64,000 bases of DNA from positions 868,001-932,000 of the forward strand of contig NZ_JAIGNN010000002.1 of NCBI RefSeq assembly GCF_019711565.1, written 5' to 3'. Shown one piece after another: positions 1 to 16,674 of this stretch (position 1 is its first letter; each line of letters opens with the position of its first letter). The translations under genes were made by a program, and so were the position numbers. The notes beneath the pieces were generated by a model. It was not told the DNA's origin. It worked only from the letters and a program-made list of their open reading frames with translations, and did no database searches. The stretch comes from Qipengyuania proteolytica. GTDB lineage: Bacteria; Pseudomonadota; Alphaproteobacteria; Sphingomonadales; Sphingomonadaceae.

Positions 1-225
1 GTCGAGGACAAGAAGCCGGTCGTCCGCAAGGCGGCGTCGGCGCGCGGCAAGCGTGCAGCTTTCACGCTGCGGCTCGATCACGAACGCCACCTGATGCTGC
101 GTCTTGCCTGCACAGTTCGCGGTCGCAGCGCCCAGCAGTTGGTGACCGACGCGCTCGACGGCCTCCTGGCGGAGATGCCGGAGATCGCGAGCCTCGCTGC
201 CCAGGTGCAGCAAAACGAAAAGTAA
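1..225 (+). CDS. Ribbon-helix-helix-like protein, 3' end only
   Basis: The open frame enters from outside the window and stops with TAA at 223-225, giving the last 74 residues. A basic stretch (KAASARGKRAAF) precedes TLRLDHERHLMLRLA and a helical segment with RSAQQLVTDALDGLLAEM, the strand-helix-helix pattern of small DNA-binding RHH proteins. It lies 36 bases before the SPOR lipoprotein in the same direction and may share its transcript. Genes of this kind often follow a ParA-like ATPase, but that partner is not visible here. The fold call is by pattern only. Confidence 0.6.
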   Translation, partial: VEDKKPVVRKAASARGKRAAFTLRLDHERHLMLRLACTVRGRSAQQLVTDALDGLLAEMPEIASLAAQVQQNEK

Positions 226-5965: not shown

Positions 5966-6040
5966 GGGCGCGTAGCTCAGTGGTAGAGCACACCCTTCAC
6001 ACGGGTGGGGTCGCAAGTTCAATCCTTGCCGCGCCCACCA
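5966..6040 (+). tRNA. tRNA-Val (anticodon CAC)
   Basis: The full cloverleaf can be drawn: acceptor GGGCGCG/CGCGCCC, D stem GCTC/GAGC, anticodon stem CACCC/GGGTG with loop TTCACAC (anticodon CAC at 5998-6000), T stem GCAAG/CTTGC, discriminator A and encoded CCA. The 3' part from 5994 onward is the attL copy of the island repeat, so this is a hybrid gene: 5' half host, 3' half brought by the element. Confidence 0.97.
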
Positions 6041-6041
6041 T
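5994..6041 (+). repeat. attL, left copy of the 48-bp att core
   Basis: It covers the tRNA from the anticodon stem to the base after CCA. It differs from attR only at 6016 (A versus G) and 6026 (T versus C). These two bases pair with each other in the T stem, so the tRNA stays folded with either copy. Confidence 0.93.
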
Positions 6042-6075
6042 CTTTTCAGAGACTTAGCTGAATAGATGACCCCAC

Positions 6076-6096
6076 TACCCCCGTCAGGGGTATTTT
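6076..6096 (+). terminator. Terminator downstream of tRNA-Val
   Basis: Stem TACCCC/GGGGTA (6076-6081 with 6087-6092), loop CGTCA, then four T. It lies 36 bases after the tRNA, inside the island, so the element supplies its own terminator for the tRNA transcript. A GGGGTAGCG motif, repeated elsewhere in the island, follows at 6098-6106. Confidence 0.7.
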
Positions 6097-6116
6097 CGGG
6101 GTAGCGATCTAGCTCC

Positions 6117-7058
6117 TCACTCTGCTCCGGCTCCGACCTTAAGCCTCCTGCGCCGGTGAACGGCCGCGTCCTTCCGGCCGGTCCATGATGGATCCACGAT
6201 GGCCGCCTCGCTGAGCTTCCCGATGAGGGAGGGAAGGACCTTCATCTTGTCCTCGACAGTGGACGCAGCCGCCTCCACCTGCTCGAGCTCGGCAATGCCT
6301 TTCGCACGGCGGTGCGGGACCTCCCGACCGCGCCGCGTCTTTGCGATGCCGGTCAGCACCCGTGGTTGACCGGGTGAGAAGGACTTCGCCTTGTGGGCCT
6401 TCAAACCATATCGAGCGATGATCTTTCGCGCTGCCTGTTGGCACTTTCGATTGGCGAACACGCCAGTAATGGACATGTCATCGACATAGACGGTGAACTC
6501 GCAACCCAGCTCGACAGCGAGCGCCGCGATTTCATCGAACATCGGCTTGTAAGCCCAAAACGACAGGATGGTGCTGGCATTGCCGCCGGTCGGTAGATGA
6601 CCATCGTATGTGAGCAACTGCTTAGCCCGGGCCGCCACGTCCGGTGGGTACTCGAGCACGTCCTCGAAGAAGCGCTGGACGTAGTGCGAGCTCGAGGAGG
6701 GAAAGAACTTCTTGATGTCGAGCTTGATGCAGGCCTTGTCCGCAGTGTGCGCGTTCGCATTGGTGATGTAGGAGCGGCCCTTCACACCTGAGTGGAGATA
6801 GTCGGGGGTCTCGATTTGAGCGAGCAACCGCGCAAAGCGCTGGTGAATGAGCTTGAGTTGCGGCTTCGGCTCCTCGATCATTCGCGGTGCCTTCCCTTCC
6901 ACCTGGGCGAGGGGGCGGACGAGATAATTTTCGTCACCCCATCGGACCAGCCGCTCGAGCGCGGTGGGCGTCACCATGAGGATGTTTGCGAGACGGCGCG
7001 GCGAGGTCAGCCGAAAGAGAGCGCTTGCCTTGAGCGGGACCCGCTTATGCGTGCTCAT
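6117..7058 (-). CDS. Retron-type reverse transcriptase
   Basis: A 313-residue reverse transcriptase. Visible motifs in order: NAxxH (N100-H104, domain X, typical of retrons), LDIKKFF with first catalytic Asp114, LPTGGNAS at about 155-162, the polymerase YVDD at 191-194, and RVLTG at 233-237 standing where retrons have the VTG triplet. There is no maturase or endonuclease domain, which argues against a group II intron. Retron RTs copy part of their own ncRNA into msDNA, with an accessory protein acting in phage defence. The start overlaps the HTH gene by 14 bases, so the two are coupled. It is the last gene before attL. Confidence 0.9.
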   Translation of the reverse strand: MSTHKRVPLKASALFRLTSPRRLANILMVTPTALERLVRWGDENYLVRPLAQVEGKAPRMIEEPKPQLKLIHQRFARLLAQIETPDYLHSGVKGRSYITNANAHTADKACIKLDIKKFFPSSSSHYVQRFFEDVLEYPPDVAARAKQLLTYDGHLPTGGNASTILSFWAYKPMFDEIAALAVELGCEFTVYVDDMSITGVFANRKCQQAARKIIARYGLKAHKAKSFSPGQPRVLTGIAKTRRGREVPHRRAKGIAELEQVEAAASTVEDKMKVLPSLIGKLSEAAIVDPSWTGRKDAAVHRRRRLKVGAGAE

Positions 7059-7362
7059 GCTCGTCCCGCTCGGCCGTCACAGTCGAAATCCAATCAAGCA
7101 TCTTGAGGGTCTTGCCCGCCACGAATGTGCGCGTCTTTTCCGCAGGCGAAGGGTTTGCCGCCTGTTCCGCGAAGAACATGAGAGACGACAGCGGGATGGA
7201 GAACGCATCCGCGTACTTCTCCAGCACCTCCATAGTCACCTTTTTGTCGCCGCGCTCGAGCTCGGTGATGTACGACTTCGAGAGCCCGACGCGATCTGCG
7301 GTCTGCGTCTTGTTCAGGTCATGAAACACCCGAACCAGTCGCAGCGCCTCGTTCAGCATCAT
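7045..7362 (-). CDS. XRE-family helix-turn-helix protein of the retron
   Basis: 105 residues. The N-terminal 65 form a lambda-repressor-like HTH (NKTQTADRVGLSKSYITELERG, with the recognition helix around SKSYITELE). A 40-residue C-terminal tail contains SSLMFFAEQAAN. AAAGGA just upstream fits either of two adjacent ATGs (7362, 7359). It overlaps the RT start and follows the 67-residue peptide gene by 21 bases. Retron surveys describe families whose partner is a small HTH protein; that is the likely role, as effector or as regulator of the locus. A satellite repressor is the alternative, since no other repressor gene is seen in the island. Confidence 0.85.
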   Translation of the reverse strand: MMLNEALRLVRVFHDLNKTQTADRVGLSKSYITELERGDKKVTMEVLEKYADAFSIPLSSLMFFAEQAANPSPAEKTRTFVAGKTLKMLDWISTVTAERDEHEHA

Positions 7363-7383
7363 GCGTCCTTTCTGTAATGACGC

Positions 7384-7587
7384 CTAGAAGTGACGGAACA
7401 TCTCGAGGACGGCGCTGACCAGTTTCACGATGGCTTCCGCCATCTTGATCAGCGACATCAGGACAAGGCGGTTCCGCAGAACCTTATCGAGGCTCCACCG
7501 CACTGCTTTCACAATGCGCCGGACCGCCTGCCGTCCGTACTTCCACAACCCGGCGTCTGGGCTCTTTTTCGGCAAATGAGCCATCAT
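7384..7587 (-). CDS. Small basic amphipathic protein in the retron operon
   Basis: A 67-residue ORF with two adjacent ATGs (7587, 7584) and a clear GGGAG Shine-Dalgarno a few bases upstream. The sequence is rich in Arg and Lys in its first half (YGRQAVRRIVKAVRW) and strongly hydrophobic in its second (LVLMSLIKMAEAIVKLVSAV), so it should form a long amphipathic or membrane-active helix. It sits between the candidate msr-msd RNA and the HTH gene in the same direction. I recognise no family. It could be a toxic effector, an RNA/DNA-binding cofactor of the retron, or simply the ORF that couples translation into the operon. Confidence 0.6.
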   Translation of the reverse strand: MMAHLPKKSPDAGLWKYGRQAVRRIVKAVRWSLDKVLRNRLVLMSLIKMAEAIVKLVSAVLEMFRHF

Positions 7588-7681
7588 GAGTCTCCCAGAC
7601 CATCGACCGGCCGAATTGCCTGTCGATCTGCACTTGGTCCGAGAGCGGATCAGGGTTGAGGTTTTGCTTCTAGGCGCACAC

Positions 7682-7832
7682 TGCACACAAGAAATTCGAA
7701 CAAACCGAATAACTGCATACCGGGACCATCTTCGTTTCTCCGACGCCGAGACGCCGGAACGAGAGCTGGCAAAGTGGTAAAGGCCTAACTGGGACCTTCA
7801 CTGGCGGCGGACCGCCATGCTTCTAGTGCATC
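7682..7832 (-). ncRNA. Candidate retron msr-msd RNA
   Basis: Read on the minus strand from 7832 down: candidate a1 TGCAC..AGAA, an AGC where retrons carry the branching G, a 6-bp hairpin with a UCCG tetraloop (7802-7817), a second 6-bp hairpin with 7-base loop (7780-7798), a 62-base long hairpin (7718-7779) whose inner stem CCGGCG/CGTCGG needs a G-U pair that exists only in the minus transcript, a 5-bp hairpin (7694-7710), and candidate a2 TTCT..GTGCA at 7682-7693. The order, small msr hairpins then one long msd hairpin upstream of the RT, fits retrons. The a1/a2 pairing is weak (5+4 bp), so the exact ends are uncertain. Confidence 0.6.
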
Positions 7833-7855
7833 TCCATTACCCAAACGCTGAGATT

Positions 7856-7884
7856 GATGTAGGCTGGCAGTTCGCCAGATGCAA
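7856..7884 (-). promoter_or_regulatory. Possible promoter of the retron unit
   Basis: On the minus strand, TTGCAT and TACATC are separated by 17 bases, placing a start about 20 bases before the candidate a1. The spacer holds a 5-bp hairpin CTGGC/GCCAG. The match to the -35/-10 consensus is modest. Confidence 0.35.
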
Positions 7885-7886
7885 GC

Positions 7887-7909
7887 AAAAGTTCGCTGTT
7901 GGCGAACTT
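7887..7909 (-). terminator. Terminator between terS operon and retron
   Basis: On the minus strand an 8-bp perfect stem AAGTTCGC/GCGAACTT with a 5-base loop ends in a short T run. It starts about ten bases after the zinc-finger stop, so it would end the terS operon and isolate the retron unit. Confidence 0.6.
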
Positions 7910-7917
7910 ATCCACAA

Positions 7918-8076
7918 CTAGACCGCATACGGGCTCGTCTCGCTCACCCGATTGCCGCACGGACCGCACAGCCGATTGTGCGAGCCCTCGCTCTCGAAGG
8001 GCTTGCGGCACCGGAGGCAAGGCCGGGTCTCAGTCGGCATGGGCTCGCCATGCACGTCCCGGCGCTTGCGCCCCAT
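7918..8076 (-). CDS. Small zinc-finger-like protein
   Basis: A 52-residue protein (40 if ATG 8040 is used) with two CxxC pairs, CLRC and CGPC, separated by 13 residues including two basic stretches, a likely zinc ribbon. It is the last gene of the minus-strand terS operon and begins 20 bases after the previous stop. Similar tiny CxxC proteins are common in phages, but I recognise no specific family. The frame stays open further upstream, but that part overlaps the preceding gene in another frame and looks like a shadow. Confidence 0.55.
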   Translation of the reverse strand: MGRKRRDVHGEPMPTETRPCLRCRKPFESEGSHNRLCGPCGNRVSETSPYAV

Positions 8077-8096
8077 GTGTGTCAGGCCCGCGTTGC

Positions 8097-8429
8097 TCAC
8101 GCGACCTCGAGCATCGCCAACATTGTGCCGTAGGCCCGTCGCTGGCCCGCGTTCATCGTTTCGCGAACGAGATGCTGGTTGTCGGGCGAGCGGAACACGT
8201 CCACCCAGACCTCGCGCTCCCCGGGCTGCCGGATAAGCCCGAAGTACGCGCCAAGCTCCTCGACCGTCACGCCGTAGATGTTCGAGACGCGCCGGACGAG
8301 CTCGAGCGTGGGCCATTGGTCCTTCACTGTCGCGATGGCTGCGGAGAGCGCCACGGTGTGTGCCCTCCGGGTCCTTTCATCGAACCGGGCCACATAGTGG
8401 TCCAGGACCTGTTCCTCGGTCAGCTCCAT
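8097..8429 (-). CDS. Hypothetical protein of the terS operon (110 aa)
   Basis: A soluble, acidic, helical protein containing WPTLELVRRVSNIYGVTVEEL, which reads like a small helix-turn-helix. It overlaps the upstream 124-residue gene by ten bases and is followed by the zinc-finger ORF. Codon use matches its neighbours. No family is recognised. Position in a phage-like packaging operon is the only functional hint. Confidence 0.65.
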   Translation of the reverse strand: MELTEEQVLDHYVARFDERTRRAHTVALSAAIATVKDQWPTLELVRRVSNIYGVTVEELGAYFGLIRQPGEREVWVDVFRSPDNQHLVRETMNAGQRRAYGTMLAMLEVA

Positions 8430-8794
8430 TGGTCGCTTGCCTCATAGACCGCATCGGTGCGGGCCTTGCGGAAGGCGACCTCAGCCGAGCGCTCGGCACA
8501 GGCGAGCTCGATCAGCACCGGGTCGGTGCCGGAGTGGTCGAGGAGGGCCTTGCCGGGGGTGCAACCCTTCTCGAGGGCGATCTCCCCGGCGCGCACCATC
8601 ATCGCGTCTGCGTACTCGGCCGCCTTGTAGAGCGGGGCGGCCTCGCCAGCGGCGATCTCGGCTGCGTTCTTGCGGATGGCGACCGAGGCGCTCTTCAGGA
8701 TCACGGCGGTTGCGCCCTTCACGGCGGGCACGTCCACGGTCGAAATCTCGTTCACCGTCATATCGCGGACGATCATCTTCTTGGGCAGGGTCAT
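8420..8794 (-). CDS. Phage-like hypothetical protein (124 aa)
   Basis: The first 35 residues include VNEISTVDVPAVKGATAVIL, which resembles the segment VxEVSLVDxPAxxGA found near the start of many phage prohead-protease or XkdF-type proteins. The rest is helical and alanine-rich and lacks any protease motif, so it is far too short for a protease. The start overlaps the previous stop in ATGA. A remnant or a capsid-interacting adaptor is possible; this is inference from a short motif. Confidence 0.6.
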   Translation of the reverse strand: MTLPKKMIVRDMTVNEISTVDVPAVKGATAVILKSASVAIRKNAAEIAAGEAAPLYKAAEYADAMMVRAGEIALEKGCTPGKALLDHSGTDPVLIELACAERSAEVAFRKARTDAVYEASDQWS

Positions 8795-9192
8795 TGTGCG
8801 GGTTCCTTTTCGGCGGGGAGAGATGACAGGTCATTCTCGACCTGCCGGGCTATCAGGGTGGCGATGGTCTGGGCCTTGGCCCGGGATTGGCGGGGCTGGT
8901 TCAGGTGGCGGAGGAGGTCCGGCGCAGACAGCTCCAGCTCGCCCAAGAGCGAGCCGCGAAACTGGTGCATCAACCGGGAGGCAGAATGCGCCTCAGAGCC
9001 GTAGCGCTGCCGATGCTCAGCGAGGAATGCCCGGTCGGCATCGAAGAGCGCGGTCATCGCTTCCCCGGCGGCCGCGATAGCGGACGAGAAGCGGGTCGCT
9101 GCCTCGGCCTTCTCTGCGGCGATCTCGCGCAGCCGGTCGGTGTGTCCGCCGTCCGGCTCCGGCGCGTCAGGCCGCTTGTTCCAAATTCCCAT
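8791..9192 (-). CDS. Hypothetical protein of the terS operon (133 aa)
   Basis: ATG 9192 has a near-perfect GGAAGGAGA Shine-Dalgarno and begins MGIWNKRPD; the longer frame upstream lies inside the previous gene. The middle is a long helical, probably coiled-coil segment rich in Ala, Glu and Arg (residues about 20-110), a profile seen in phage scaffold or accessory proteins. It overlaps its downstream neighbour in ATGA. No family is recognised. Confidence 0.65.
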   Translation of the reverse strand: MGIWNKRPDAPEPDGGHTDRLREIAAEKAEAATRFSSAIAAAGEAMTALFDADRAFLAEHRQRYGSEAHSASRLMHQFRGSLLGELELSAPDLLRHLNQPRQSRAKAQTIATLIARQVENDLSSLPAEKEPAQ

Positions 9193-9613
9193 TGTCGTCT
9201 CCTTCCAATCCGGTGGTGGGGTTGCCCAAGGACGCACGCACCGATGCGATCACGTCGCGCGCCTCCTTCGGCTCGAAGCCCGCATGCTCGAGGTCTGCCC
9301 TTCGGGCGCTCCAGAATTGTTCATCGAATGCGGGCCGCTCGGCCTCGTCCCGGGCCTTCATCAGGACCCAGCGGTCATAGGTGCTGGTGGGCTCCCGCTC
9401 GCCCCGAATCAGCCGGTCCTCATGCCACAGGACGGCCAATTCGGGGGTCGCAGGCGCAGCCTCGCCCATCTCGTACAGGACCGAGATGCGCAAGGCGCGG
9501 CGCTCGGCCGGGGTCATCAGGCGATAGCCCACGGCGAACGCAAAATCATCGAGCGCGGTGTCCCGGTCCACCGGACCGAGCTCGAGCAGCCTGCGGGCTT
9601 CATCCCGCGTCAT
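9167..9613 (-). CDS. Hypothetical protein of the terS operon (148 aa)
   Basis: A soluble, charged protein with several Trp residues (LWHEDRLIRGE, YDRWVLMKARDEAE). It overlaps terS by 14 bases and the 133-residue gene by 26, so the block is tightly co-translated. No motif or family is recognised. In a normal phage the large terminase would sit here, but nothing in this protein resembles a Walker ATPase or nuclease. Confidence 0.65.
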   Translation of the reverse strand: MTRDEARRLLELGPVDRDTALDDFAFAVGYRLMTPAERRALRISVLYEMGEAAPATPELAVLWHEDRLIRGEREPTSTYDRWVLMKARDEAERPAFDEQFWSARRADLEHAGFEPKEARDVIASVRASLGNPTTGLEGDDNGNLEQAA

Positions 9614-10103
9614 GGTCGATCACCCGGGCCGGAGCCGGAAGCTGCGGGCGGAGGTTGCTAGCCATCTGCAACGCGACCTTCGCCACGGCATCGCCTAGCA
9701 CCCCGGCATCGACACTATGCGTCACTTGCTTGTTCACGGCGATGGCGTTGGTCTCGCGGTATGCAGGTAGCATCGCCCGGGCGCGAAGCTCGAGCAGGCG
9801 GTCCGAATACTTGCGGACGGTGCCGACAACCTTCTCACGGTATTTCCCGCCATATATCGGCTCTTCGACCCCCTCCTGCGCGCGGCGGTAAATCTCGGCT
9901 TCGATGCTGGCCTCTGCCGTCAGCAGGGCCTCGTCCCATTGCCGCGCGAACTCCGGGTCCCGCTCGCGTTCATCCTTGAAGGTCTGCACCGCACCGTAAC
10001 GGGCCGATGCACGCGGACTGGCGGCCCTTGCCGCACGGACGAGGATGCCGTGGCGGGATAACTCGGCCAAAAAGGCCTGCTTGCGGCGGTCGGTCAACTT
10101 CAT
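9600..10103 (-). CDS. terS: Small terminase subunit-like protein
   Basis: 167 residues. The N-terminus has an HTH-like region (LVRAARAASPRASARY), followed by ERDPEFARQWDEAL and then RRAQEGVEEPIYGGKYREK and VVGTVRKYSDRLLELRARAM, the signature run of phage small terminases. In phages this protein recognises pac/cos DNA and hands it to the large subunit. Without a large subunit nearby, the likely role is redirecting a helper phage's packaging motor to the island genome, as in PICIs and SaPIs. First gene of a six-gene minus-strand operon. Confidence 0.8.
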   Translation of the reverse strand: MKLTDRRKQAFLAELSRHGILVRAARAASPRASARYGAVQTFKDERERDPEFARQWDEALLTAEASIEAEIYRRAQEGVEEPIYGGKYREKVVGTVRKYSDRLLELRARAMLPAYRETNAIAVNKQVTHSVDAGVLGDAVAKVALQMASNLRPQLPAPARVIDHDAG

Positions 10104-10151
10104 GGCCGGAAGGTAGCTGGCGCGGCCAACGGAACGAACGGCGAAGCATTG

Positions 10152-10191
10152 ATGCCGTAGGAAATAATGAGGCTATTTTCCTCATCGGCAT
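10152..10191. repeat. Hairpin upstream of the terS operon
   Basis: Outer stem ATGCCG/CGGCAT (10152-10157 with 10186-10191) encloses two mutually exclusive inner stems: AGGAAATA with TATTTTCCT (one bulge), or ATGAGG with CCTCAT. It lies 49 bases upstream of the terS start, so it could be an operator or a 5' RNA switch for that operon. The stretch 10104-10597 has no convincing protein gene and holds only this hairpin, a short leader ORF and the structured region described next. Confidence 0.5.
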
Positions 10192-10597: not shown

Positions 10598-10888
10598 ATG
10601 GCGAAGTTTAAGGTGTCCATCGGCGAGCCTTTCGCAATCGATGGCGTTGAGATTGAAGATGTCGATGCGGTTGAGCGTCTTGCCGCTATCGATGAACGTC
10701 GCGGCTTGTCGCGGGATCAGGCCCGGATCACCTATGGTGTTCTCGGGGCTATGATTGTGGCTGTGTCGCTGACAGCGTTCATTGGCTGGCATGACGGGAG
10801 CTACAACGAGTTGAATGCCGTCTGGAATAATGGCGGCATCTGGGTCGGATTGGTGTTGGGCCGCTACTTCAACTTCAAGAAGGATTGA
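10598..10888 (+). CDS. Small membrane protein of the island (96 aa)
   Basis: The N-terminal 40 residues are soluble and acidic (VEIEDVDAVERLAAIDE). Then comes a membrane segment YGVLGAMIVAVSLTAFIGW and a second hydrophobic stretch IWVGLVLGRYF near the end, so the protein probably makes a two-pass hairpin. First gene of a three-gene plus-strand cassette behind the structured leader. The size and topology are like phage holins or membrane-active abortive-infection proteins, but no family is recognised. Confidence 0.65.
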   Translation: MAKFKVSIGEPFAIDGVEIEDVDAVERLAAIDERRGLSRDQARITYGVLGAMIVAVSLTAFIGWHDGSYNELNAVWNNGGIWVGLVLGRYFNFKKD

Positions 10889-10897
10889 AGGCGTCAG

Positions 10898-11137
10898 ATG
10901 CCCAAAGGGCAAACAACATCAGATAGCACATCGAAGCGCATACAGATGGATATGCCGCCGCGATCCGTCGAGCGGCTGAAACGTCTGCAGGAAGTGACGG
11001 AGGCGGCGTCTTACGCTGAGGTCATGAAAAACGCACTGCGTCTGTACGAGGCCTTGATCGAAGAGGTCGAGGCCGGGAACGAGATCATGGTGAAGCGCGG
11101 GAAAGACACCGTTCCGCTGCTGATCTTCTCGGCCTAA
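10898..11137 (+). CDS. Ribbon-helix-helix protein of the island
   Basis: 79 residues with KRIQMDMPPRSVERLKRLQEVTEAASYAEVMKNALRLYEAL, here in two parts: a strand (RIQMDMPP) and two helices typical of CopG/MetJ-type DNA binders. The tail KRGKDTVPLLIF is shared by many stand-alone RHH proteins. It starts nine bases after the upstream stop. RHH proteins often autoregulate their operon or act as antitoxins, so it may control the flanking membrane genes. Confidence 0.8.
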   Translation: MPKGQTTSDSTSKRIQMDMPPRSVERLKRLQEVTEAASYAEVMKNALRLYEALIEEVEAGNEIMVKRGKDTVPLLIFSA

Positions 11138-11151
11138 TTGCGAGCTCTGGT

Positions 11152-11835
11152 ATGCTGGAAATGATAGCTGATGGAGCCATTGGGGTGGGCTACGCAATCG
11201 GTCATTGGATCTACGACTTCCAAACGCTCATTACCGGCGCTGCTGCCATCGGTGCAGCGTGGTACGCCGGAGCTCCAGTCTGGCGTCAGCTAAAGGACAG
11301 CAACCTTCAAACCCGCATCATGCATCGGGAAACGCTTGCTATCCGCCAGCGTGAAACCGAAGAGCGCGCCGCCCGTGTGGCGAAGGCAATAGATGGGCCG
11401 CTCTGGAGAGCCCAAGAACTAACTAGCGACCCTGCGGGTGAACCTCTCGAAGTTGGCGAGCACGACGCCTTTGGATTGGAGCAGATGATCGTCGGCGCCC
11501 TTAACTGGTATTTAGTCACGCTCGAAGGCACCGAGGATGCGCGAATTGAAGAGGCGAAGGCTGCCTTGAAGGCGGCGCTCAAAGACCTGACCGACACACT
11601 GGGCGACGTTCACCGGCCTGCGTCCAGCGACCAGCATGGCGAGGACTACTCGTTCACGGATGAAGAATGGGCCGAGATCGAGCAGAAGGCAGCGAAGAGC
11701 AAGGCACTGGCGACTGAGAAAGTCAGTGCAGCATGGAAGGCGAATCGGTCGCTCAAAGCAGCGCAGGAACAGGTGGTCGATGAACTGCGCCAACAGATAG
11801 CAGCTCTGGACCTGAGCATCGCCAAAAGCACCTAG
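11152..11835 (+). CDS. Membrane-anchored coiled-coil protein of the island
   Basis: 227 residues. One or two hydrophobic segments lie between residues 8 and 42 (FQTLITGAAAIGAAWYAGA). A charged helical region follows (METLAIRQRETEERAARVAK-like, about 58-80), then a mixed middle and a C-terminal coiled coil rich in Ala, Glu and Lys (about 165-220). The start is ATG 11152 or 11161; neither has a strong Shine-Dalgarno. Third gene of the cassette, followed by a terminator beyond the iterons. No family recognised; an anchored scaffold or sensor is a guess. Confidence 0.65.
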   Translation: MLEMIADGAIGVGYAIGHWIYDFQTLITGAAAIGAAWYAGAPVWRQLKDSNLQTRIMHRETLAIRQRETEERAARVAKAIDGPLWRAQELTSDPAGEPLEVGEHDAFGLEQMIVGALNWYLVTLEGTEDARIEEAKAALKAALKDLTDTLGDVHRPASSDQHGEDYSFTDEEWAEIEQKAAKSKALATEKVSAAWKANRSLKAAQEQVVDELRQQIAALDLSIAKST

Positions 11836-11857: not shown

Positions 11858-12039
11858 CTTCTCAAATGGCCGTTGCGGCCCTTGGAAACGATGGAGTGAC
11901 TGCAAACGGCCCGGCCCTCGCATAGGGTCAGGTCCGGTTCCGGTGGTGGCGATCTCGCTCGCGCCCGCGCGAAGGGACAACGCACCAAACGGCGGGCGGC
12001 GGCACTTTGCCCAGAGGAGCCATCGAACAGGCAGAACCG

Positions 12040-12229
12040 GAGGTCGGTTAGGTCGGTCACTGGGTCGGTTGCCCGAACAGCCAATATTTCAACAGCTTTA
12101 CCGACTTAACCGACCTAACCGACTTAGAGAGAAGAATAATAGCGGAGGGGCCTTAGGCATGTCTATTTGGGCAGAGACTGGCCGCCGCTCCGCGCGGTTT
12201 TCTGGTCGGTAAAGTCGGCTAGGTCGGTT
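12040..12229. repeat. Iteron array, probable replication origin
   Basis: Three clusters of a 9-bp unit ACCGACYTA or its complement TAGGTCGGT. Cluster 1 (12040-12069): three reverse units, the third offset by three bases. Cluster 2 (12100-12126): three perfectly tandem forward units. Cluster 3 (12203-12229): three reverse units. The array lies between the plus-strand cassette and the 3' end of the primase-helicase gene, where PICI origins are often found. The rest of 11836-12301 is gene-free apart from a terminator and a small GGCGG/CCGCC hairpin at 12269-12285. Confidence 0.7.
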
Positions 12230-12232
12230 AAC

Positions 12233-12254
12233 CCCACGGGCTTCGTGGGTTTTT
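12233..12254 (+). terminator. Terminator of the plus-strand island cassette
   Basis: Perfect stem CCCACG/CGTGGG (12233-12238 with 12244-12249), loop GGCTT, then five T. It lies beyond the iterons, so the cassette transcript would read through the candidate origin. Confidence 0.8.
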
Positions 12255-12301
12255 CATCAAGAGGGGTCGGCGGGGATAAACCGCCCCCCGGTTCAAGTCG
12301 G

Positions 12302-14734
12302 TCAGTATGGGTCATTTTCGTCTGGCGCGGCGCTGCCGACACCCCAGCCCGGTGTCGGCTGCCATGCACCAGGGAACTCGATTTCATCCCACTTCCGCCG
12401 GATTTCTTCGAGTGGCGGCATCACCCACCCCCTCGGCCTCCGCCGACCATCCCTCATGCAGCCCAGATTATCGAGAAGCTCGCCCACCTCGTTCAGGGTC
12501 ATGTCATCGCGCCGCGTCCGCTTCTGCGCATACTCAAGGAGCTCGCTGGTCGAGACAAAGACGTGACCACCACCGCAATCCCGCACCGCCTGAAGCTGCG
12601 GCAATTCGCCTGTTTTAAGCAGGTCGAAAAATACACCTTTGAACCCCGTCAGCGATGCGGCCTTCTGCTCATTCAATGCGGCAGTCTGCGGCACTCCCCG
12701 GCGCGGATGCCAGTTGCCGAGGTCCATCGCCAACAGGTCATACAGGAAGCCTTGCAGTCCCTCGCCGTTAATCTCATCGTACAGTGCGTCCCAGAATGCG
12801 CGGTTGCGTTCCTCATTCGGGTCGCCCGGCCGCGCGGCGAGGTGCGGCGAAACGTCGAAGATGGCGAAGCGGCGCTCGTCAGCCCCGGCCGGTACAACCC
12901 ATCGCTCGTTCGATGCCATCATAACGTGCAGCCGGTTCTTCGCAGTGAACTTCCCCAGACCCTTCGGCTCGATCAGCAACGTAGGCTCGGTGATCATCAC
13001 CTTGATCATCTGCTCTGCCTTCTTCTCGCCCGGCGCGACGGCCTCGTCAGCGAACAGCAGGATGCAATCGTGGAGGTGGTCGTTGAACTGGCCGTGGAGG
13101 TGCTGCGGATGCGTGACGCTCATCCCGTGCTGGCCAAAAATGCGGCGCATTGCGTGACCAAGTGTGCTCTTGCCCACACCGCGCTTGCCGCGAAAGACGA
13201 GAGCGACCTCGGCCGCCCGTTCGGGGTGCTGAACCGCGAAGGCCAGCCAGCGCATGATGTATTCGGCATACTCCGCATTGCCCCCGGCTAGGCCCTCGTG
13301 AATCAGGCGATGTAATAGGGGCCACGAGTGCGGCTCCGGCGTTACCGCTAGCCCTCGCCAAAGGTTGTACTCGTGCAATTCATCGGTGTTCTCGCCCGGC
13401 GCGAACACGATGGTCTCGTACTGGCGGCGCATCGGGTGTTTCAGCCACCAATCACCGGCCGGAACCATCTTCGGATTGTTATTGCCATCGGTGCCGCATT
13501 GGACCTTGAGGTTCATGTAGCGGTTCTTGAAGTCAGCGACGGTTTGATATTCGAGGCATTCGCGGCCTTCGTCGATCTCGCTCCGGCGCGGCGATGCGAT
13601 GCGGAACTTGCCACCGATGCTGCCCACAGCGAAGTGCTTGCCATTCAGCTCGCGCAGCATCGGCTCCTCGACCTCGGCCCGCGCTCGCTCGATCTGGCGC
13701 TCAACGTAGGCGCGGGTCTGTTTTTGGGCGAGGGTGTGTGCCGAGATGCCGAGGTCCGGGTCCGCAATCACGGCGGCAATCTGCTCATCGGTGCAGCCAG
13801 CCCGGACCATCTCGCAGACGACAGCGAAGGTCACTTCTGAGCGGCTCGAGTACCTCAACGGGTCATCGGGGTCGTCACCCTGCACGATCAACATTCGGGT
13901 GCGCGGAGTTACGGCTGCGGGTAACGTGTCGAGGTCAATCGGGGCTGGAATGCCTTCGAGCTGTACCTTCGCCTGTCCGCTTGTCACGGACGCCTTCCTA
14001 GCTGACGCGGCGGTGAATTCTGCTACGCGATAGCGCTTTGGCAACTCGCCCTCGAGTGGAGAAACGAGCCGGGCGAGCCGGGGCTTGCGCCCGTCACCCT
14101 CCTTCCAGTTGATCGTGCCGGGTAAGCGAAGAACGCGGTCAACATTGTGGCAGCTATCCCCGCCAAGCACCGTCTCGAGATGCTGGTTGTAGAGCTCGGC
14201 ATCCTCGGCTGCCGCTTCGTTCCCTCCGATGTACAGCGGGTCTTCGAACAACCAAATGCCCTGCATCCCTCCGCCACTGTCGATTTTCAGCGAAGGTGCG
14301 GGCTTGAAGTCGCGCAACTTGGTGGCGGCCGCCTCCCGCTCACGCGCATAATGCTGGACTTTCTCCGCCTCGGTGGCGTCGTTGGGTGGCTTCCTCGGGT
14401 CAATATCGACGTGGCCGCCGATCATCCACTTGGTGTCCCGCTTCTTCGCCTTCTTCGTAAGGTCGTGCGTGGGCGTGTTGAGCATGAAATAGATGTTGTA
14501 GCGCTCGACTAGATTGTGCCGCTGGATCCACTCGCCCATGCGCTGCTCATCGCCCGGGTAGAAGGTCGCTGTCTTTGTCGGTTCGTTTCTCCCACGGATA
14601 GCGGTCAAGACCCAAGGACCCTCCGAGCGAATAAGGCGCTGCGAAAGGATTGCCTCGGCAATGCTCGGGCGGAGCTCCCCGTCCTCAACGCTTCGGCCTT
14701 CGTCCCCGGCTCCGGGGGCACTATAGTCACTCAC
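12302..14734 (-). CDS. AEP primase-SF3 helicase replication protein
   Basis: 810 residues. The N-terminal third carries an archaeo-eukaryotic primase signature: HVDID with Asp110 and Asp112, and HNVDRVLRLPGTIN at about 196-209. The C-terminal half is an SF3-type (DUF5906-like) ATPase: Walker A GKRGVGKS at 516-523, Walker B LLFADEA at 559-565, sensor Asn in MMASNER at 605-611 and ADERRF with the Arg finger. Proteins of this kind prime and unwind satellite and plasmid origins, here presumably the iterons beside its 3' end. Start is GTG 14734 with GGGAGA upstream. Downstream of alpA in the same direction. Confidence 0.9.
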   Translation of the reverse strand: MSDYSAPGAGDEGRSVEDGELRPSIAEAILSQRLIRSEGPWVLTAIRGRNEPTKTATFYPGDEQRMGEWIQRHNLVERYNIYFMLNTPTHDLTKKAKKRDTKWMIGGHVDIDPRKPPNDATEAEKVQHYAREREAAATKLRDFKPAPSLKIDSGGGMQGIWLFEDPLYIGGNEAAAEDAELYNQHLETVLGGDSCHNVDRVLRLPGTINWKEGDGRKPRLARLVSPLEGELPKRYRVAEFTAASARKASVTSGQAKVQLEGIPAPIDLDTLPAAVTPRTRMLIVQGDDPDDPLRYSSRSEVTFAVVCEMVRAGCTDEQIAAVIADPDLGISAHTLAQKQTRAYVERQIERARAEVEEPMLRELNGKHFAVGSIGGKFRIASPRRSEIDEGRECLEYQTVADFKNRYMNLKVQCGTDGNNNPKMVPAGDWWLKHPMRRQYETIVFAPGENTDELHEYNLWRGLAVTPEPHSWPLLHRLIHEGLAGGNAEYAEYIMRWLAFAVQHPERAAEVALVFRGKRGVGKSTLGHAMRRIFGQHGMSVTHPQHLHGQFNDHLHDCILLFADEAVAPGEKKAEQMIKVMITEPTLLIEPKGLGKFTAKNRLHVMMASNERWVVPAGADERRFAIFDVSPHLAARPGDPNEERNRAFWDALYDEINGEGLQGFLYDLLAMDLGNWHPRRGVPQTAALNEQKAASLTGFKGVFFDLLKTGELPQLQAVRDCGGGHVFVSTSELLEYAQKRTRRDDMTLNEVGELLDNLGCMRDGRRRPRGWVMPPLEEIRRKWDEIEFPGAWQPTPGWGVGSAAPDENDPY

Positions 14735-14798: not shown

Positions 14799-14987
14799 TT
14801 AGGCGGCCAGCTTCTCTTCGAGCCACGCGATCACCTCGGACCGCATCCACACGACGCGATTGCTTCCGATGCGCTTTTGCTTGGGAAACTCGCCCTTCTT
14901 GACCATCGCGTAGATGGTCGATTGGGAAAGGGTGGTCAGCTCGATTACACCTCCGATGTCGAGGACAAGCTGATTGTCAGTACTCAT
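14799..14987 (-). CDS. alpA: AlpA-family excisionase/activator
   Basis: A 62-residue MerR-like winged HTH: IGGVIELTTLSQSTIYAMV is the helix-turn-helix and KRIGSNRVVWMRSEVIAWL the wing and third helix, matching AlpA closely in motif and length. In E. coli islands AlpA activates the integrase or the replication module; it also acts as an excision factor. GAGGAGA upstream supports the start. A 23-bp imperfect palindrome lies 13 bases before the ATG. It is divergent from nothing: integrase, alpA and primase all read the same way. Confidence 0.93.
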   Translation of the reverse strand: MSTDNQLVLDIGGVIELTTLSQSTIYAMVKKGEFPKQKRIGSNRVVWMRSEVIAWLEEKLAA

Positions 14988-15124: not shown

Positions 15125-16471
15125 CTAAATGGACTTCGCCCATAGCTTGCCCCACGTCTCCAGCGCGGCGCGCTTCTCGTCCAGATAGCTGTAGCGGTTG
15201 TACGTCCCGGCGACACCGGCAACGACATGGCCGAGAACCCGCTCGATATGTTCCTGGGCCACGCCAAGACGCGCCATGTGCGTCGCAACGGACCGGCGAA
15301 TGTCGTGCAGCGTCCACGGCTCCATCGGCTCGATCTCGGCCTTCTTCGCCTTCTTGGCAATCTTCACGTCCAGCCGCGCCTTCGCCTTCGAGAAACCGCT
15401 GAACGGCCGCTCGCCCCCGGTCGTGCTGAAGATGAACTCCCCGCCGTTCCACTTGGGCAGGGCCTCGACCAATGCCCAAGCCGGGGCGGACAGCGGGAAC
15501 ACGTGAGGCCGCTTGGTCTTGTAGCTGGCCGCCGGTATCTCGACCGCGCGCTGTTCCTTCTGAATCCATCCCCGCTCAAGCCCCGCGATCTCGGAGCGCC
15601 GTTGTCCAGTGAGAATGAGCAGGCGGATCATGTCGCCAAAGGGATGGCCCGCCTCCCCGGCCGCGTCCCATATCTGCCGCAATTCCTCGACCGTGAGCAC
15701 CCGTTCACGCGAAACGTAACCGAGCTCGGGCCGCTGCATCCCGGCGAGCGGGTTGGCGGCGATCAATCCCCGGTCCGCTGCCCAGTTGAACATCCGGGTC
15801 AGGTGCTTGCGCACCTCCCGGGCGATGGGTGCGCCGCTCTCCTCGATCACCTCGTCCAGCATTTCGTGCGCCTCTGCCCGAGTGATCGTCTCGATCAGGC
15901 GGCCCTGCCACTTCGGAGCGACGTGGTCAGCGAGCAATCGCTCGGCTGGACAGCGACCAACCTTGCGGGGTTTCGGCTCGTCCTCGGTCCCGGCTCCGGC
16001 CTTCTCTACATCGGCCTTGGCGAGCTCCTCCTGCGCCTTCGCCCAACGGCCGTCCTTCGTGTTGGGCTTGGCGTACAATTCAACGAAACGGTCGAGCACG
16101 ACCTCGAAGGTGCGCGTCTGCCGTTGTTCGACCTCTTCGGCTTTCACGGCGGCCGGATCGATGCCATCGTCTGCCTGCTCCAGTGCCGCCCGGGCTTTCG
16201 TCCGGGCTTCGGCCAGCGACACCTTGGGGTAGGCCCCGAGGCTCAACCGCTTCATGTCCCCGCGCTTTCCGTCCGGCTGGACGACACGGTAGAGCATGGA
16301 CCAGCTCTTCTTGCCGCTCTTGCCCACGCGGACGCGAAGCTCGCGCACGATGTCGTCCGCGATTTCGGAGCGGGTGCCTGCCTTAGCCGTCAGCGCCTCG
16401 AGCCGCTTCTCCGTGAGCCGCTCCCTGCCGCGCTTCTCTTTCACCGTGGGCGTATCTGCCGCCGTTGCCAT
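15125..16471 (-). CDS. int: Tyrosine integrase (P4-like, DUF4102 N-terminus)
   Basis: 448 residues. The N-terminus up to about 110 matches the arm-binding DUF4102 pattern (GDMKRLSLGAYPKVSLAEAR). The core-binding domain covers about 120-240, the catalytic domain 255-440. Catalytic residues: Arg in TGQRRSEI (about 291), HDIRR (His389, Arg392), LGH (His415) and a Tyr in TYNRY (about 424). It inserts the island into tRNA-Val. Unusually it lies at the attR end, not next to the intact tRNA. Two GGGTAGCGC repeats precede the start. Confidence 0.95.
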   Translation of the reverse strand: MATAADTPTVKEKRGRERLTEKRLEALTAKAGTRSEIADDIVRELRVRVGKSGKKSWSMLYRVVQPDGKRGDMKRLSLGAYPKVSLAEARTKARAALEQADDGIDPAAVKAEEVEQRQTRTFEVVLDRFVELYAKPNTKDGRWAKAQEELAKADVEKAGAGTEDEPKPRKVGRCPAERLLADHVAPKWQGRLIETITRAEAHEMLDEVIEESGAPIAREVRKHLTRMFNWAADRGLIAANPLAGMQRPELGYVSRERVLTVEELRQIWDAAGEAGHPFGDMIRLLILTGQRRSEIAGLERGWIQKEQRAVEIPAASYKTKRPHVFPLSAPAWALVEALPKWNGGEFIFSTTGGERPFSGFSKAKARLDVKIAKKAKKAEIEPMEPWTLHDIRRSVATHMARLGVAQEHIERVLGHVVAGVAGTYNRYSYLDEKRAALETWGKLWAKSI

Positions 16472-16626: not shown

Positions 16627-16674
16627 CCTTCACACGGGTGGGGTCGCAGGTTCAATCCCTGCCGCGCCCACCAT
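16627..16674 (+). repeat. attR, right copy of the 48-bp att core
   Basis: This is the displaced host 3' fragment of tRNA-Val, from the anticodon stem through CCA and one further base. It has G16649 and C16659 where attL has A and T. No 5' half exists here, so it is not a functional tRNA. Confidence 0.93.

What the first reader, a model, noticed from the sequence alone, without database searches (positions are those of the whole stretch)
6117..7909. A retron carried as cargo of the satellite
RT with NAxxH, YVDD and LTG motifs, an overlapping XRE HTH gene, a basic 67-residue peptide and a folded upstream RNA form one unit with its own candidate promoter, placed at the attL end. Known retrons defend against phage, and a satellite has an interest in excluding rival phages.
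Basis: partly seen in the sequence, partly recalled or inferred. Interest (0 to 1): 0.85.

Follow-up and report, generated by a model that had tools for sequence, protein, structure and literature searches.

The report
Type VI retron in a satellite
A small phage-dependent DNA island carries a retron, a reverse-transcriptase system of a known but little-studied kind, and comparison with relatives suggests that the gene for its small membrane-type peptide is built into the same folded RNA that the system uses, which could be a new way to keep such a peptide in check.

Summary
Window 6117-7909 (minus strand) is one unit: palindrome and promoter-like boxes, folded leader RNA, a 67-codon ORF, an XRE-type HTH gene and an overlapping RT gene. 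RT and HTH best match PADLOC's type VI retron profiles (RT_VI 245.5 bits, runner-up 109.5; HTH_VI 107.4 bits). The unit lies between attL, in tRNA-Val, and the core of a 10.6-kb island with integrase, AlpA-like excisionase, primase and small terminase subunit. A sister island lacks the retron and carries a methyltransferase/Vsr cassette. So "retron as satellite cargo" is supported, as a new member of a known kind. Defence and msDNA were not testable.

New here: in 48 of 52 dereplicated loci a cationic peptide ORF sits just before the HTH gene (39 of 2080 resampled controls). Its codons are constrained at synonymous sites (16 of 16 chosen pairs), and it is enclosed by a covarying inverted repeat (P/P', 0 of 5000 permutations). 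I propose that the retron RNA is also the mRNA of a small amphipathic effector, so that the reverse-transcription machinery controls its translation in cis. Which segment is reverse transcribed remains open.

The parts
6117..7058 (-). retron reverse transcriptase, type VI (313 aa)
   Evidence: PADLOC RT_VI E 1.5e-73, 245.5 bits; Pfam RVT_1; NANAH, YVDD, LTG read in sequence
7045..7362 (-). XRE-family HTH protein (105 aa), overlaps RT by 14 nt; candidate autoregulator
   Evidence: PADLOC HTH_VI E 8e-32; Pfam HTH_3
7384..7587 (-). small cationic amphipathic peptide ORF (67 codons), candidate effector; RNA-constrained
   Evidence: positional ORF in 48 of 52 loci; amphipathic tail; dS 0.04-0.05 against HTH 0.46; two predicted helices
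7380..7390 (-). element P' over the stop codon of the small ORF
   Evidence: pairs with P
7592..7645 (-). hairpin SL5 directly before the small-ORF start, with asymmetric bulge Q' at 7628-7635
   Evidence: fold
7667..7677 (-). element P, complementary to P'
7676..7718 (-). second leader hairpin
7730..7765 (-). long hairpin that varies between relatives, candidate msd
7776..7801 (-). leader hairpin hpB, candidate msr
7803..7816 (-). leader hairpin hpA, candidate msr
7819..7832 (-). element Q, can pair with the bulge of SL5
7856..7884 (-). promoter-like -35/-10 with 17-nt spacer
   Evidence: counted by hand from sequence
7892..7906 (-). palindromic candidate HTH operator; extra half-site 7870-7877
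5994..6041 (+). attL core in tRNA-Val (5966-6040)
16627..16674 (+). attR core
9600..10103 (-). terminase small subunit
   Evidence: phrog_4044 E 3.8e-28
12302..14734 (-). primase (DUF5906)
14799..14987 (-). AlpA-like excisionase/regulator
   Evidence: phrog_2790 E 5.3e-15
15125..16471 (-). tyrosine integrase

Best explanation
A type VI retron carried as exchangeable cargo at the attL end of a PICI-like satellite. Shown by comparison: palindrome, folded leader, small cationic amphipathic ORF, XRE HTH and RT form one conserved unit; the small ORF is conserved as a protein pattern, its nucleotides are also constrained as RNA, and it lies inside a long-range covarying stem (P/P'). Inferred: the HTH protein binds the palindrome and autoregulates; the peptide is the membrane-acting effector; RT bound to the leader and/or its msDNA keeps the peptide silent, in part in cis because its mRNA is continuous with the retron RNA; phage damage to RT, msDNA or repressor frees translation and stops the cell. 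The satellite gains exclusion of rival phages.
For: Family. Small ORF: 48 of 52 loci against 39 of 2080 resamples; helical moment z>=1 in 43 of 48; two-helix model, mean pLDDT 75.3. RNA constraint: small-ORF dS below HTH dS in 16 of 16 chosen pairs, counting three saturated HTH values as higher; third-position identity above HTH in 13 of 13 pairs. P/P': mean -16.6 own against -13.2 kcal/mol permuted, 0 of 5000; also 0 of 5000 without the window's clade; z -7.5 and -9.8 in the two windows 120-60 nt before the small ORF, elsewhere between -2.6 and +1.3, HTH and ORF-interior controls between -0.9 and +1.3. In 7 sequences of the window's clade 9 of 10 pairs are always canonical and 4 changed on both sides (register set by eye). 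Operator 42 of 51 loci against 7 of 153 control stretches. Cargo.
Against: P/P' is not visible in every locus: own rank <=0.05 in only 10 of 51, and a gapped-duplex shuffle test reached p<=0.05 in 15 of 59. The outermost of the 10 window-clade pairs is non-canonical in 4 of 7. The canonical a1/a2 of retrons was only weakly seen (z -1.8 to -3.1). An alignment of SL5 over 21 loci gave no consensus structure. Leader MFE z lies between -2.6 and -0.1 in 15 loci. The operator consensus was taken from part of the same loci, and 9 of 51 loci, among them the E. coli/Klebsiella P2 group, have no strong operator. Small-ORF dN/dS near 1 in the closest pairs is unusual for a protein gene. Nothing was tested in cells.
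Confidence: 0.5

Rival explanations
1. Canonical arrangement: msr (hpA, hpB) and msd (variable hairpin) lie in the leader; the msDNA-RT complex holds the small peptide in trans as in other retrons; P/P' only processes or insulates the mRNA.
For: Two hairpins followed by a long hairpin that varies between relatives; Q/Q' links the leader 5' end to SL5 (z -5.8 at its peak; 3 of 5000, and 14 of 5000 with 31 representatives). The likeness to the msr of known retrons is recalled, not tested.
Against: Does not by itself explain synonymous constraint inside the small ORF.
Confidence: 0.4
2. P/P' are the a1/a2 repeats: the small ORF lies inside the reverse-transcribed RNA, and RT-DNA is antisense to the peptide gene.
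For: P/P' is the strongest long-range pairing found; RNA-like evolution of the ORF; consensus hairpins inside the ORF of the window's clade with compensation seen by eye (4 sequences).
Against: Leaves the leader hairpins unexplained; ORF folding z lies between -2.1 and +0.8 in 15 loci.
Confidence: 0.2
3. The unit is a lysogeny or immunity regulator of mobile elements, not an abortive system; the peptide is a co-regulator.
For: XRE protein with a palindrome at its own promoter region; phage carriers.
Against: Cationic amphipathic peptide looks more like a membrane-active peptide than a regulator (inference); also on plasmids.
Confidence: 0.15
4. Block exchange or gene conversion of leader plus small ORF, not RNA constraint, lowers dS there.
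For: The unit is mobile.
Against: Leader before P is less conserved than the small ORF in 11 of 13 pairs; the pattern recurs in all 16 pairs, from several clades.
Confidence: 0.1

Closest known systems
Type VI retrons (Mestre 2020; P2-like phages and Shewanella MuM16-1 in PMC8541194, passages seen)
   Same: RT preceded by a DNA-binding protein gene and associated with small auxiliary protein genes; carried by phages
   Different: here in a satellite at attL; the small ORF's RNA constraint and P/P' are reported here. Mestre 2020 is not held, so I cannot say it does not describe the RNA
Retrons in P4-like satellites (phiR73) and P2/P4 defence hotspots (PMC9122126, passages seen)
   Same: satellite or phage with a variable defence slot that holds retrons or restriction systems
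   Different: other satellite family, other slot; retron type not compared here
Tripartite retron toxin-antitoxin systems (recalled; PMC12548924 and PMC13405049 seen as abstract starts and passages)
   Same: RT, RNA and an effector
   Different: effector here would be a tiny amphipathic peptide encoded on the retron transcript
Small amphipathic type I toxins (recalled, not tested)
   Same: short amphipathic or hydrophobic helix, mRNA with structured leader
   Different: no credible Pfam match; linked to an RT

Membership tests
type VI retron | RT of the type VI clade | tested here: met
   RT_VI 245.5 bits against 109.5 for the next profile; no tree was built
type VI retron | partner DNA-binding (HTH) gene | tested here: met
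   HTH_VI 107.4 bits
type VI retron | small auxiliary protein gene (as cited in PMC8541194) | tested here: met
   7384-7587
type VI retron | msr-msd RNA with a1/a2 repeats | tested here: inconclusive
   structured leader and covarying P/P', but canonical a1/a2 weak and no Rfam match
type VI retron | branched msDNA made by the RT | not testable with these tools
   needs RT-DNA sequencing
type VI retron | anti-phage function | not testable with these tools
   needs phage assays
group II intron or DGR RT | best RT match to these classes | tested here: not met
   group_II_RT_mat 13.8 bits; retron models 64-93 bits; no DGR model appeared in the list
PICI-like satellite | integrase, excisionase/AlpA, primase, TerS, att repeats | tested here: met
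PICI-like satellite | no capsid or tail genes | tested here: inconclusive
   none among ten ORFs scanned against PHROGs; the other ORFs of the island were not scanned there
PICI-like satellite | induction and packaging by a helper phage | not testable with these tools
   needs helper phage

The most novel reading that the evidence does not exclude
In type VI retrons the retron RNA and the effector mRNA are one molecule: the small amphipathic toxin ORF is folded into the RNA by P/P' and Q/Q', so that RT binding or reverse transcription and toxin translation are mutually exclusive, and phage interference with the RT directly releases toxin synthesis.
Probability: 0.35. Interest if true: 0.82.

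Novelty: new member of a known kind. Interest (0 to 1): 0.55.

Why it matters
Units of this kind occur in phages, plasmids and this satellite; in E. coli the leader/small-ORF/HTH region of phage P2_2H1 has a match in 99 of 5426 genomes. The listings of my paper searches showed no title or abstract start on the mechanism of type VI retrons; I opened passages of six papers only, and most subscription journals are not held. A conserved small peptide ORF embedded in an RNA-constrained, covarying transcript gives a concrete, testable mechanism and names the segments to mutate. It would join retrons to type I toxin-antitoxin logic and show how satellites swap defence modules at attL.

Tried and rejected
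Rfam retron match: none. DGR/group II origin: rejected. Antisense gene as the cause of synonymous constraint: antisense frames open in only 14, 14 and 2 of 48 loci. Gapped-duplex test of P/P': weak. The P-to-leader signal at op+125..160 (z -4.8) came, by eye, from the arms of the variable hairpin. SL5 alignment over groups: no structure. Pfam on 24 small proteins: only chance-level matches, best E 0.027. MFE z-scores: not decisive. I considered whether msDNA could carry the operator as a decoy and saw no operator in the window's variable hairpin by eye. L118 was fetched and not used.

Full report
What is there. On the minus strand of 6117-7909 the order is palindrome (7892-7906), promoter-like boxes (7879-7884, 7856-7861, counted by hand), folded leader, 67-codon ORF (7384-7587), XRE HTH (7045-7362) and RT (6117-7058). 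RT and HTH best match PADLOC RT_VI and HTH_VI. NCBIfam retron models score 64-93 bits, below their own cut-offs, and the group II model 13.8 bits. The six PDB sequences matched are retron RTs (Ec67, Kva2, Ec86). The RT has one match in its genome. No RT tree was built.

The element. tRNA-Val 5966-6040 holds attL; a 48-nt repeat recurs at 16627-16674. Between them lie integrase, AlpA-like protein, primase and TerS, a PICI-like set. Of 60 genomes of the genus, its own included, 5 have an RT relative at E<=1e-20, 2 a TerS relative at E<=1e-15 and 1 this integrase at E<=1e-100. In G1125 (L115), of the 14 kb compared, window 5991-8099 (att core plus retron) is shared at 99%, plus a 151-nt stretch 88% like the window's integrase next to it; beyond the att core lies a different phage integrase, with 29% identity over 147 residues to the window's. 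In G1130 (L117) parts of the satellite core are shared (7952-8782, 9187-9541, 9610-10154 and pieces of 11933-13780), a tRNA-Arg lies past its last cargo gene, and in place of the retron there are other genes; between TerS and primase it has a methyltransferase, Vsr and an ORF matching the PADLOC candidate PDC-M33A; its genome has no RT relative at E<=1e-20. Its integration site was not tested by att repeats. The retron thus behaves as exchangeable cargo with a junction near 7950.

Relatives. Relatives came from one genome-contig scan (3 loci), one viral-contig scan (8 loci, not used further), tblastn on phages (23 records) and plasmids (157 records), and family searches: 33 of 397 family and 21 of 385 class genomes (both E<=1e-30), 16 of 398 phylum genomes (E<=1e-55), plus 8 of 396 order genomes with the RT protein at E<=1e-40; the own genome is in each of the last four. 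Weaker hits include other retron types. I examined 75 loci, chosen from those fetched; 61 have the HTH upstream of the RT, 14 do not. In E. coli the leader/small-ORF/HTH region of P2_2H1 matches in 99 of 5426 genomes.

The small protein. A picker that takes the best-scoring ORF found one 24-73 nt before the HTH in 60 of 61 loci; the other, L110, is cut by the record start. L081, L082 and L084 have a different, not clearly cationic ORF; L096 has a broken frame. After removing 8 near-duplicates, 48 of 52 loci meet ATG, length, charge and hydropathy criteria, against 39 of 2080 first-order Markov resamples. In 48 loci (duplicates, L096, L081, L082, L084 left out) the tail's helical moment has median z 2.26, 43 with z>=1; the N-terminal half is net positive in 47. 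AlphaFold, on 19 rows, gives two helices, 10-37 and 39-64, mean pLDDT 75.3, pTM 0.35. No family hit worth the name. [quoted passage not shown]

RNA-level constraint. In 16 chosen pairs both halves of the small ORF have lower dS than the HTH gene (three saturated HTH values counted as higher; the margin is small in L070-L068, 0.62 against 0.66 for one half); window-L002: 0.05/0.04 against 0.46 for HTH and 1.47 for RT. Third-position identity of the small ORF exceeds that of HTH in 13 of 13 pairs and lies within 10 points of the ORF's overall identity. Antisense frames do not explain it. dN/dS near 1 in the closest pairs fits an RNA constraint laid over a protein that is conserved in pattern.

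Long-range pairing. Segment P, about 60-120 nt before the small ORF, pairs with P' at its stop codon: 51 dereplicated loci, own -16.6 against permuted -13.2 (sd 0.38), 0 of 5000; without the window's clade 0 of 5000; 31 representatives, 0 of 5000. In a scan of 18 windows the two covering P have z -7.5 and -9.8, the others -2.6 to +1.3; six control windows lie between -0.9 and +1.3. In the window's clade 9 of 10 pairs, in a register set by eye, are canonical in all 7 sequences and 4 changed on both sides; the outermost is non-canonical in 4. A helix of 8 or more occurs in 35 of 51 loci against 37.3% for foreign P'. Against it: own rank <=0.05 in only 10 of 51 loci, and the first test was weak. 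Q/Q', leader to SL5 bulge, is weaker: 46 loci (5 left out), z -5.8 at its peak in a scan of 88 window pairs, 3 of 5000 in wider windows, 14 of 5000 with 31 representatives. For the E. coli/Klebsiella group the anchor was set by a motif inside Q; leaving it out gives 4 of 5000. Cross controls Q/P' and P/Q' are negative. Canonical a1/a2 is weaker still.

Operator. A TTCGCT-n3-AGCGAA-like palindrome lies upstream of promoter-like boxes (seen by eye) in 42 of 51 loci against 7 of 153 control stretches. The consensus was seen first in the window's clade, so those rows are not independent.

Mechanism and limits. Shown: unit, family, cargo status, conserved peptide, RNA constraint, P/P'. Inferred: HTH autoregulation, peptide toxicity, silencing through RT, msDNA and cis RNA, phage trigger, benefit to the satellite. 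I cannot tell which segment is reverse transcribed. Retrons in satellites are known (PMC9122126, passages read), so the element is a new member of a known kind; the RNA-embedded effector is the part that may be new.

Noticed in passing
L117 2851-8082 and 10421-12203: Sister satellite with methyltransferase, Vsr and a PDC-M33A-like ORF between TerS and primase, and other genes (one PDC-M32A-like) in the retron's slot, near a tRNA-Arg.
   Followed up: partly
L115 7749-11560: Same retron with att core beside a different phage integrase, next to a 151-nt stretch 88% like the window's integrase.
   Followed up: partly
L081, L082, L084 upstream of HTH: These more distant relatives carry a longer, not clearly cationic ORF in the small-ORF slot; possibly a variant effector.
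   Followed up: no
L096 upstream of HTH: The small ORF has a broken frame relative to L045; intact copies exist elsewhere.
   Followed up: no
L107, L109, L110: RT/HTH units of this kind on plasmids of Scytonema, Staphylococcus and Ligilactobacillus; the first two with a small ORF of the same pattern, the third cut by the record start.
   Followed up: partly
window 10598-11835: Three plus-strand ORFs of unknown function inside the satellite, opposite in direction to the genes listed in parts; no PADLOC match for the three, no PHROG match for the one scanned.
   Followed up: no
window 7870-7877: Extra GCGAAC half-site 21 nt after the one in the palindrome, inside the promoter spacer; also in L002 and L022.
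   Followed up: no
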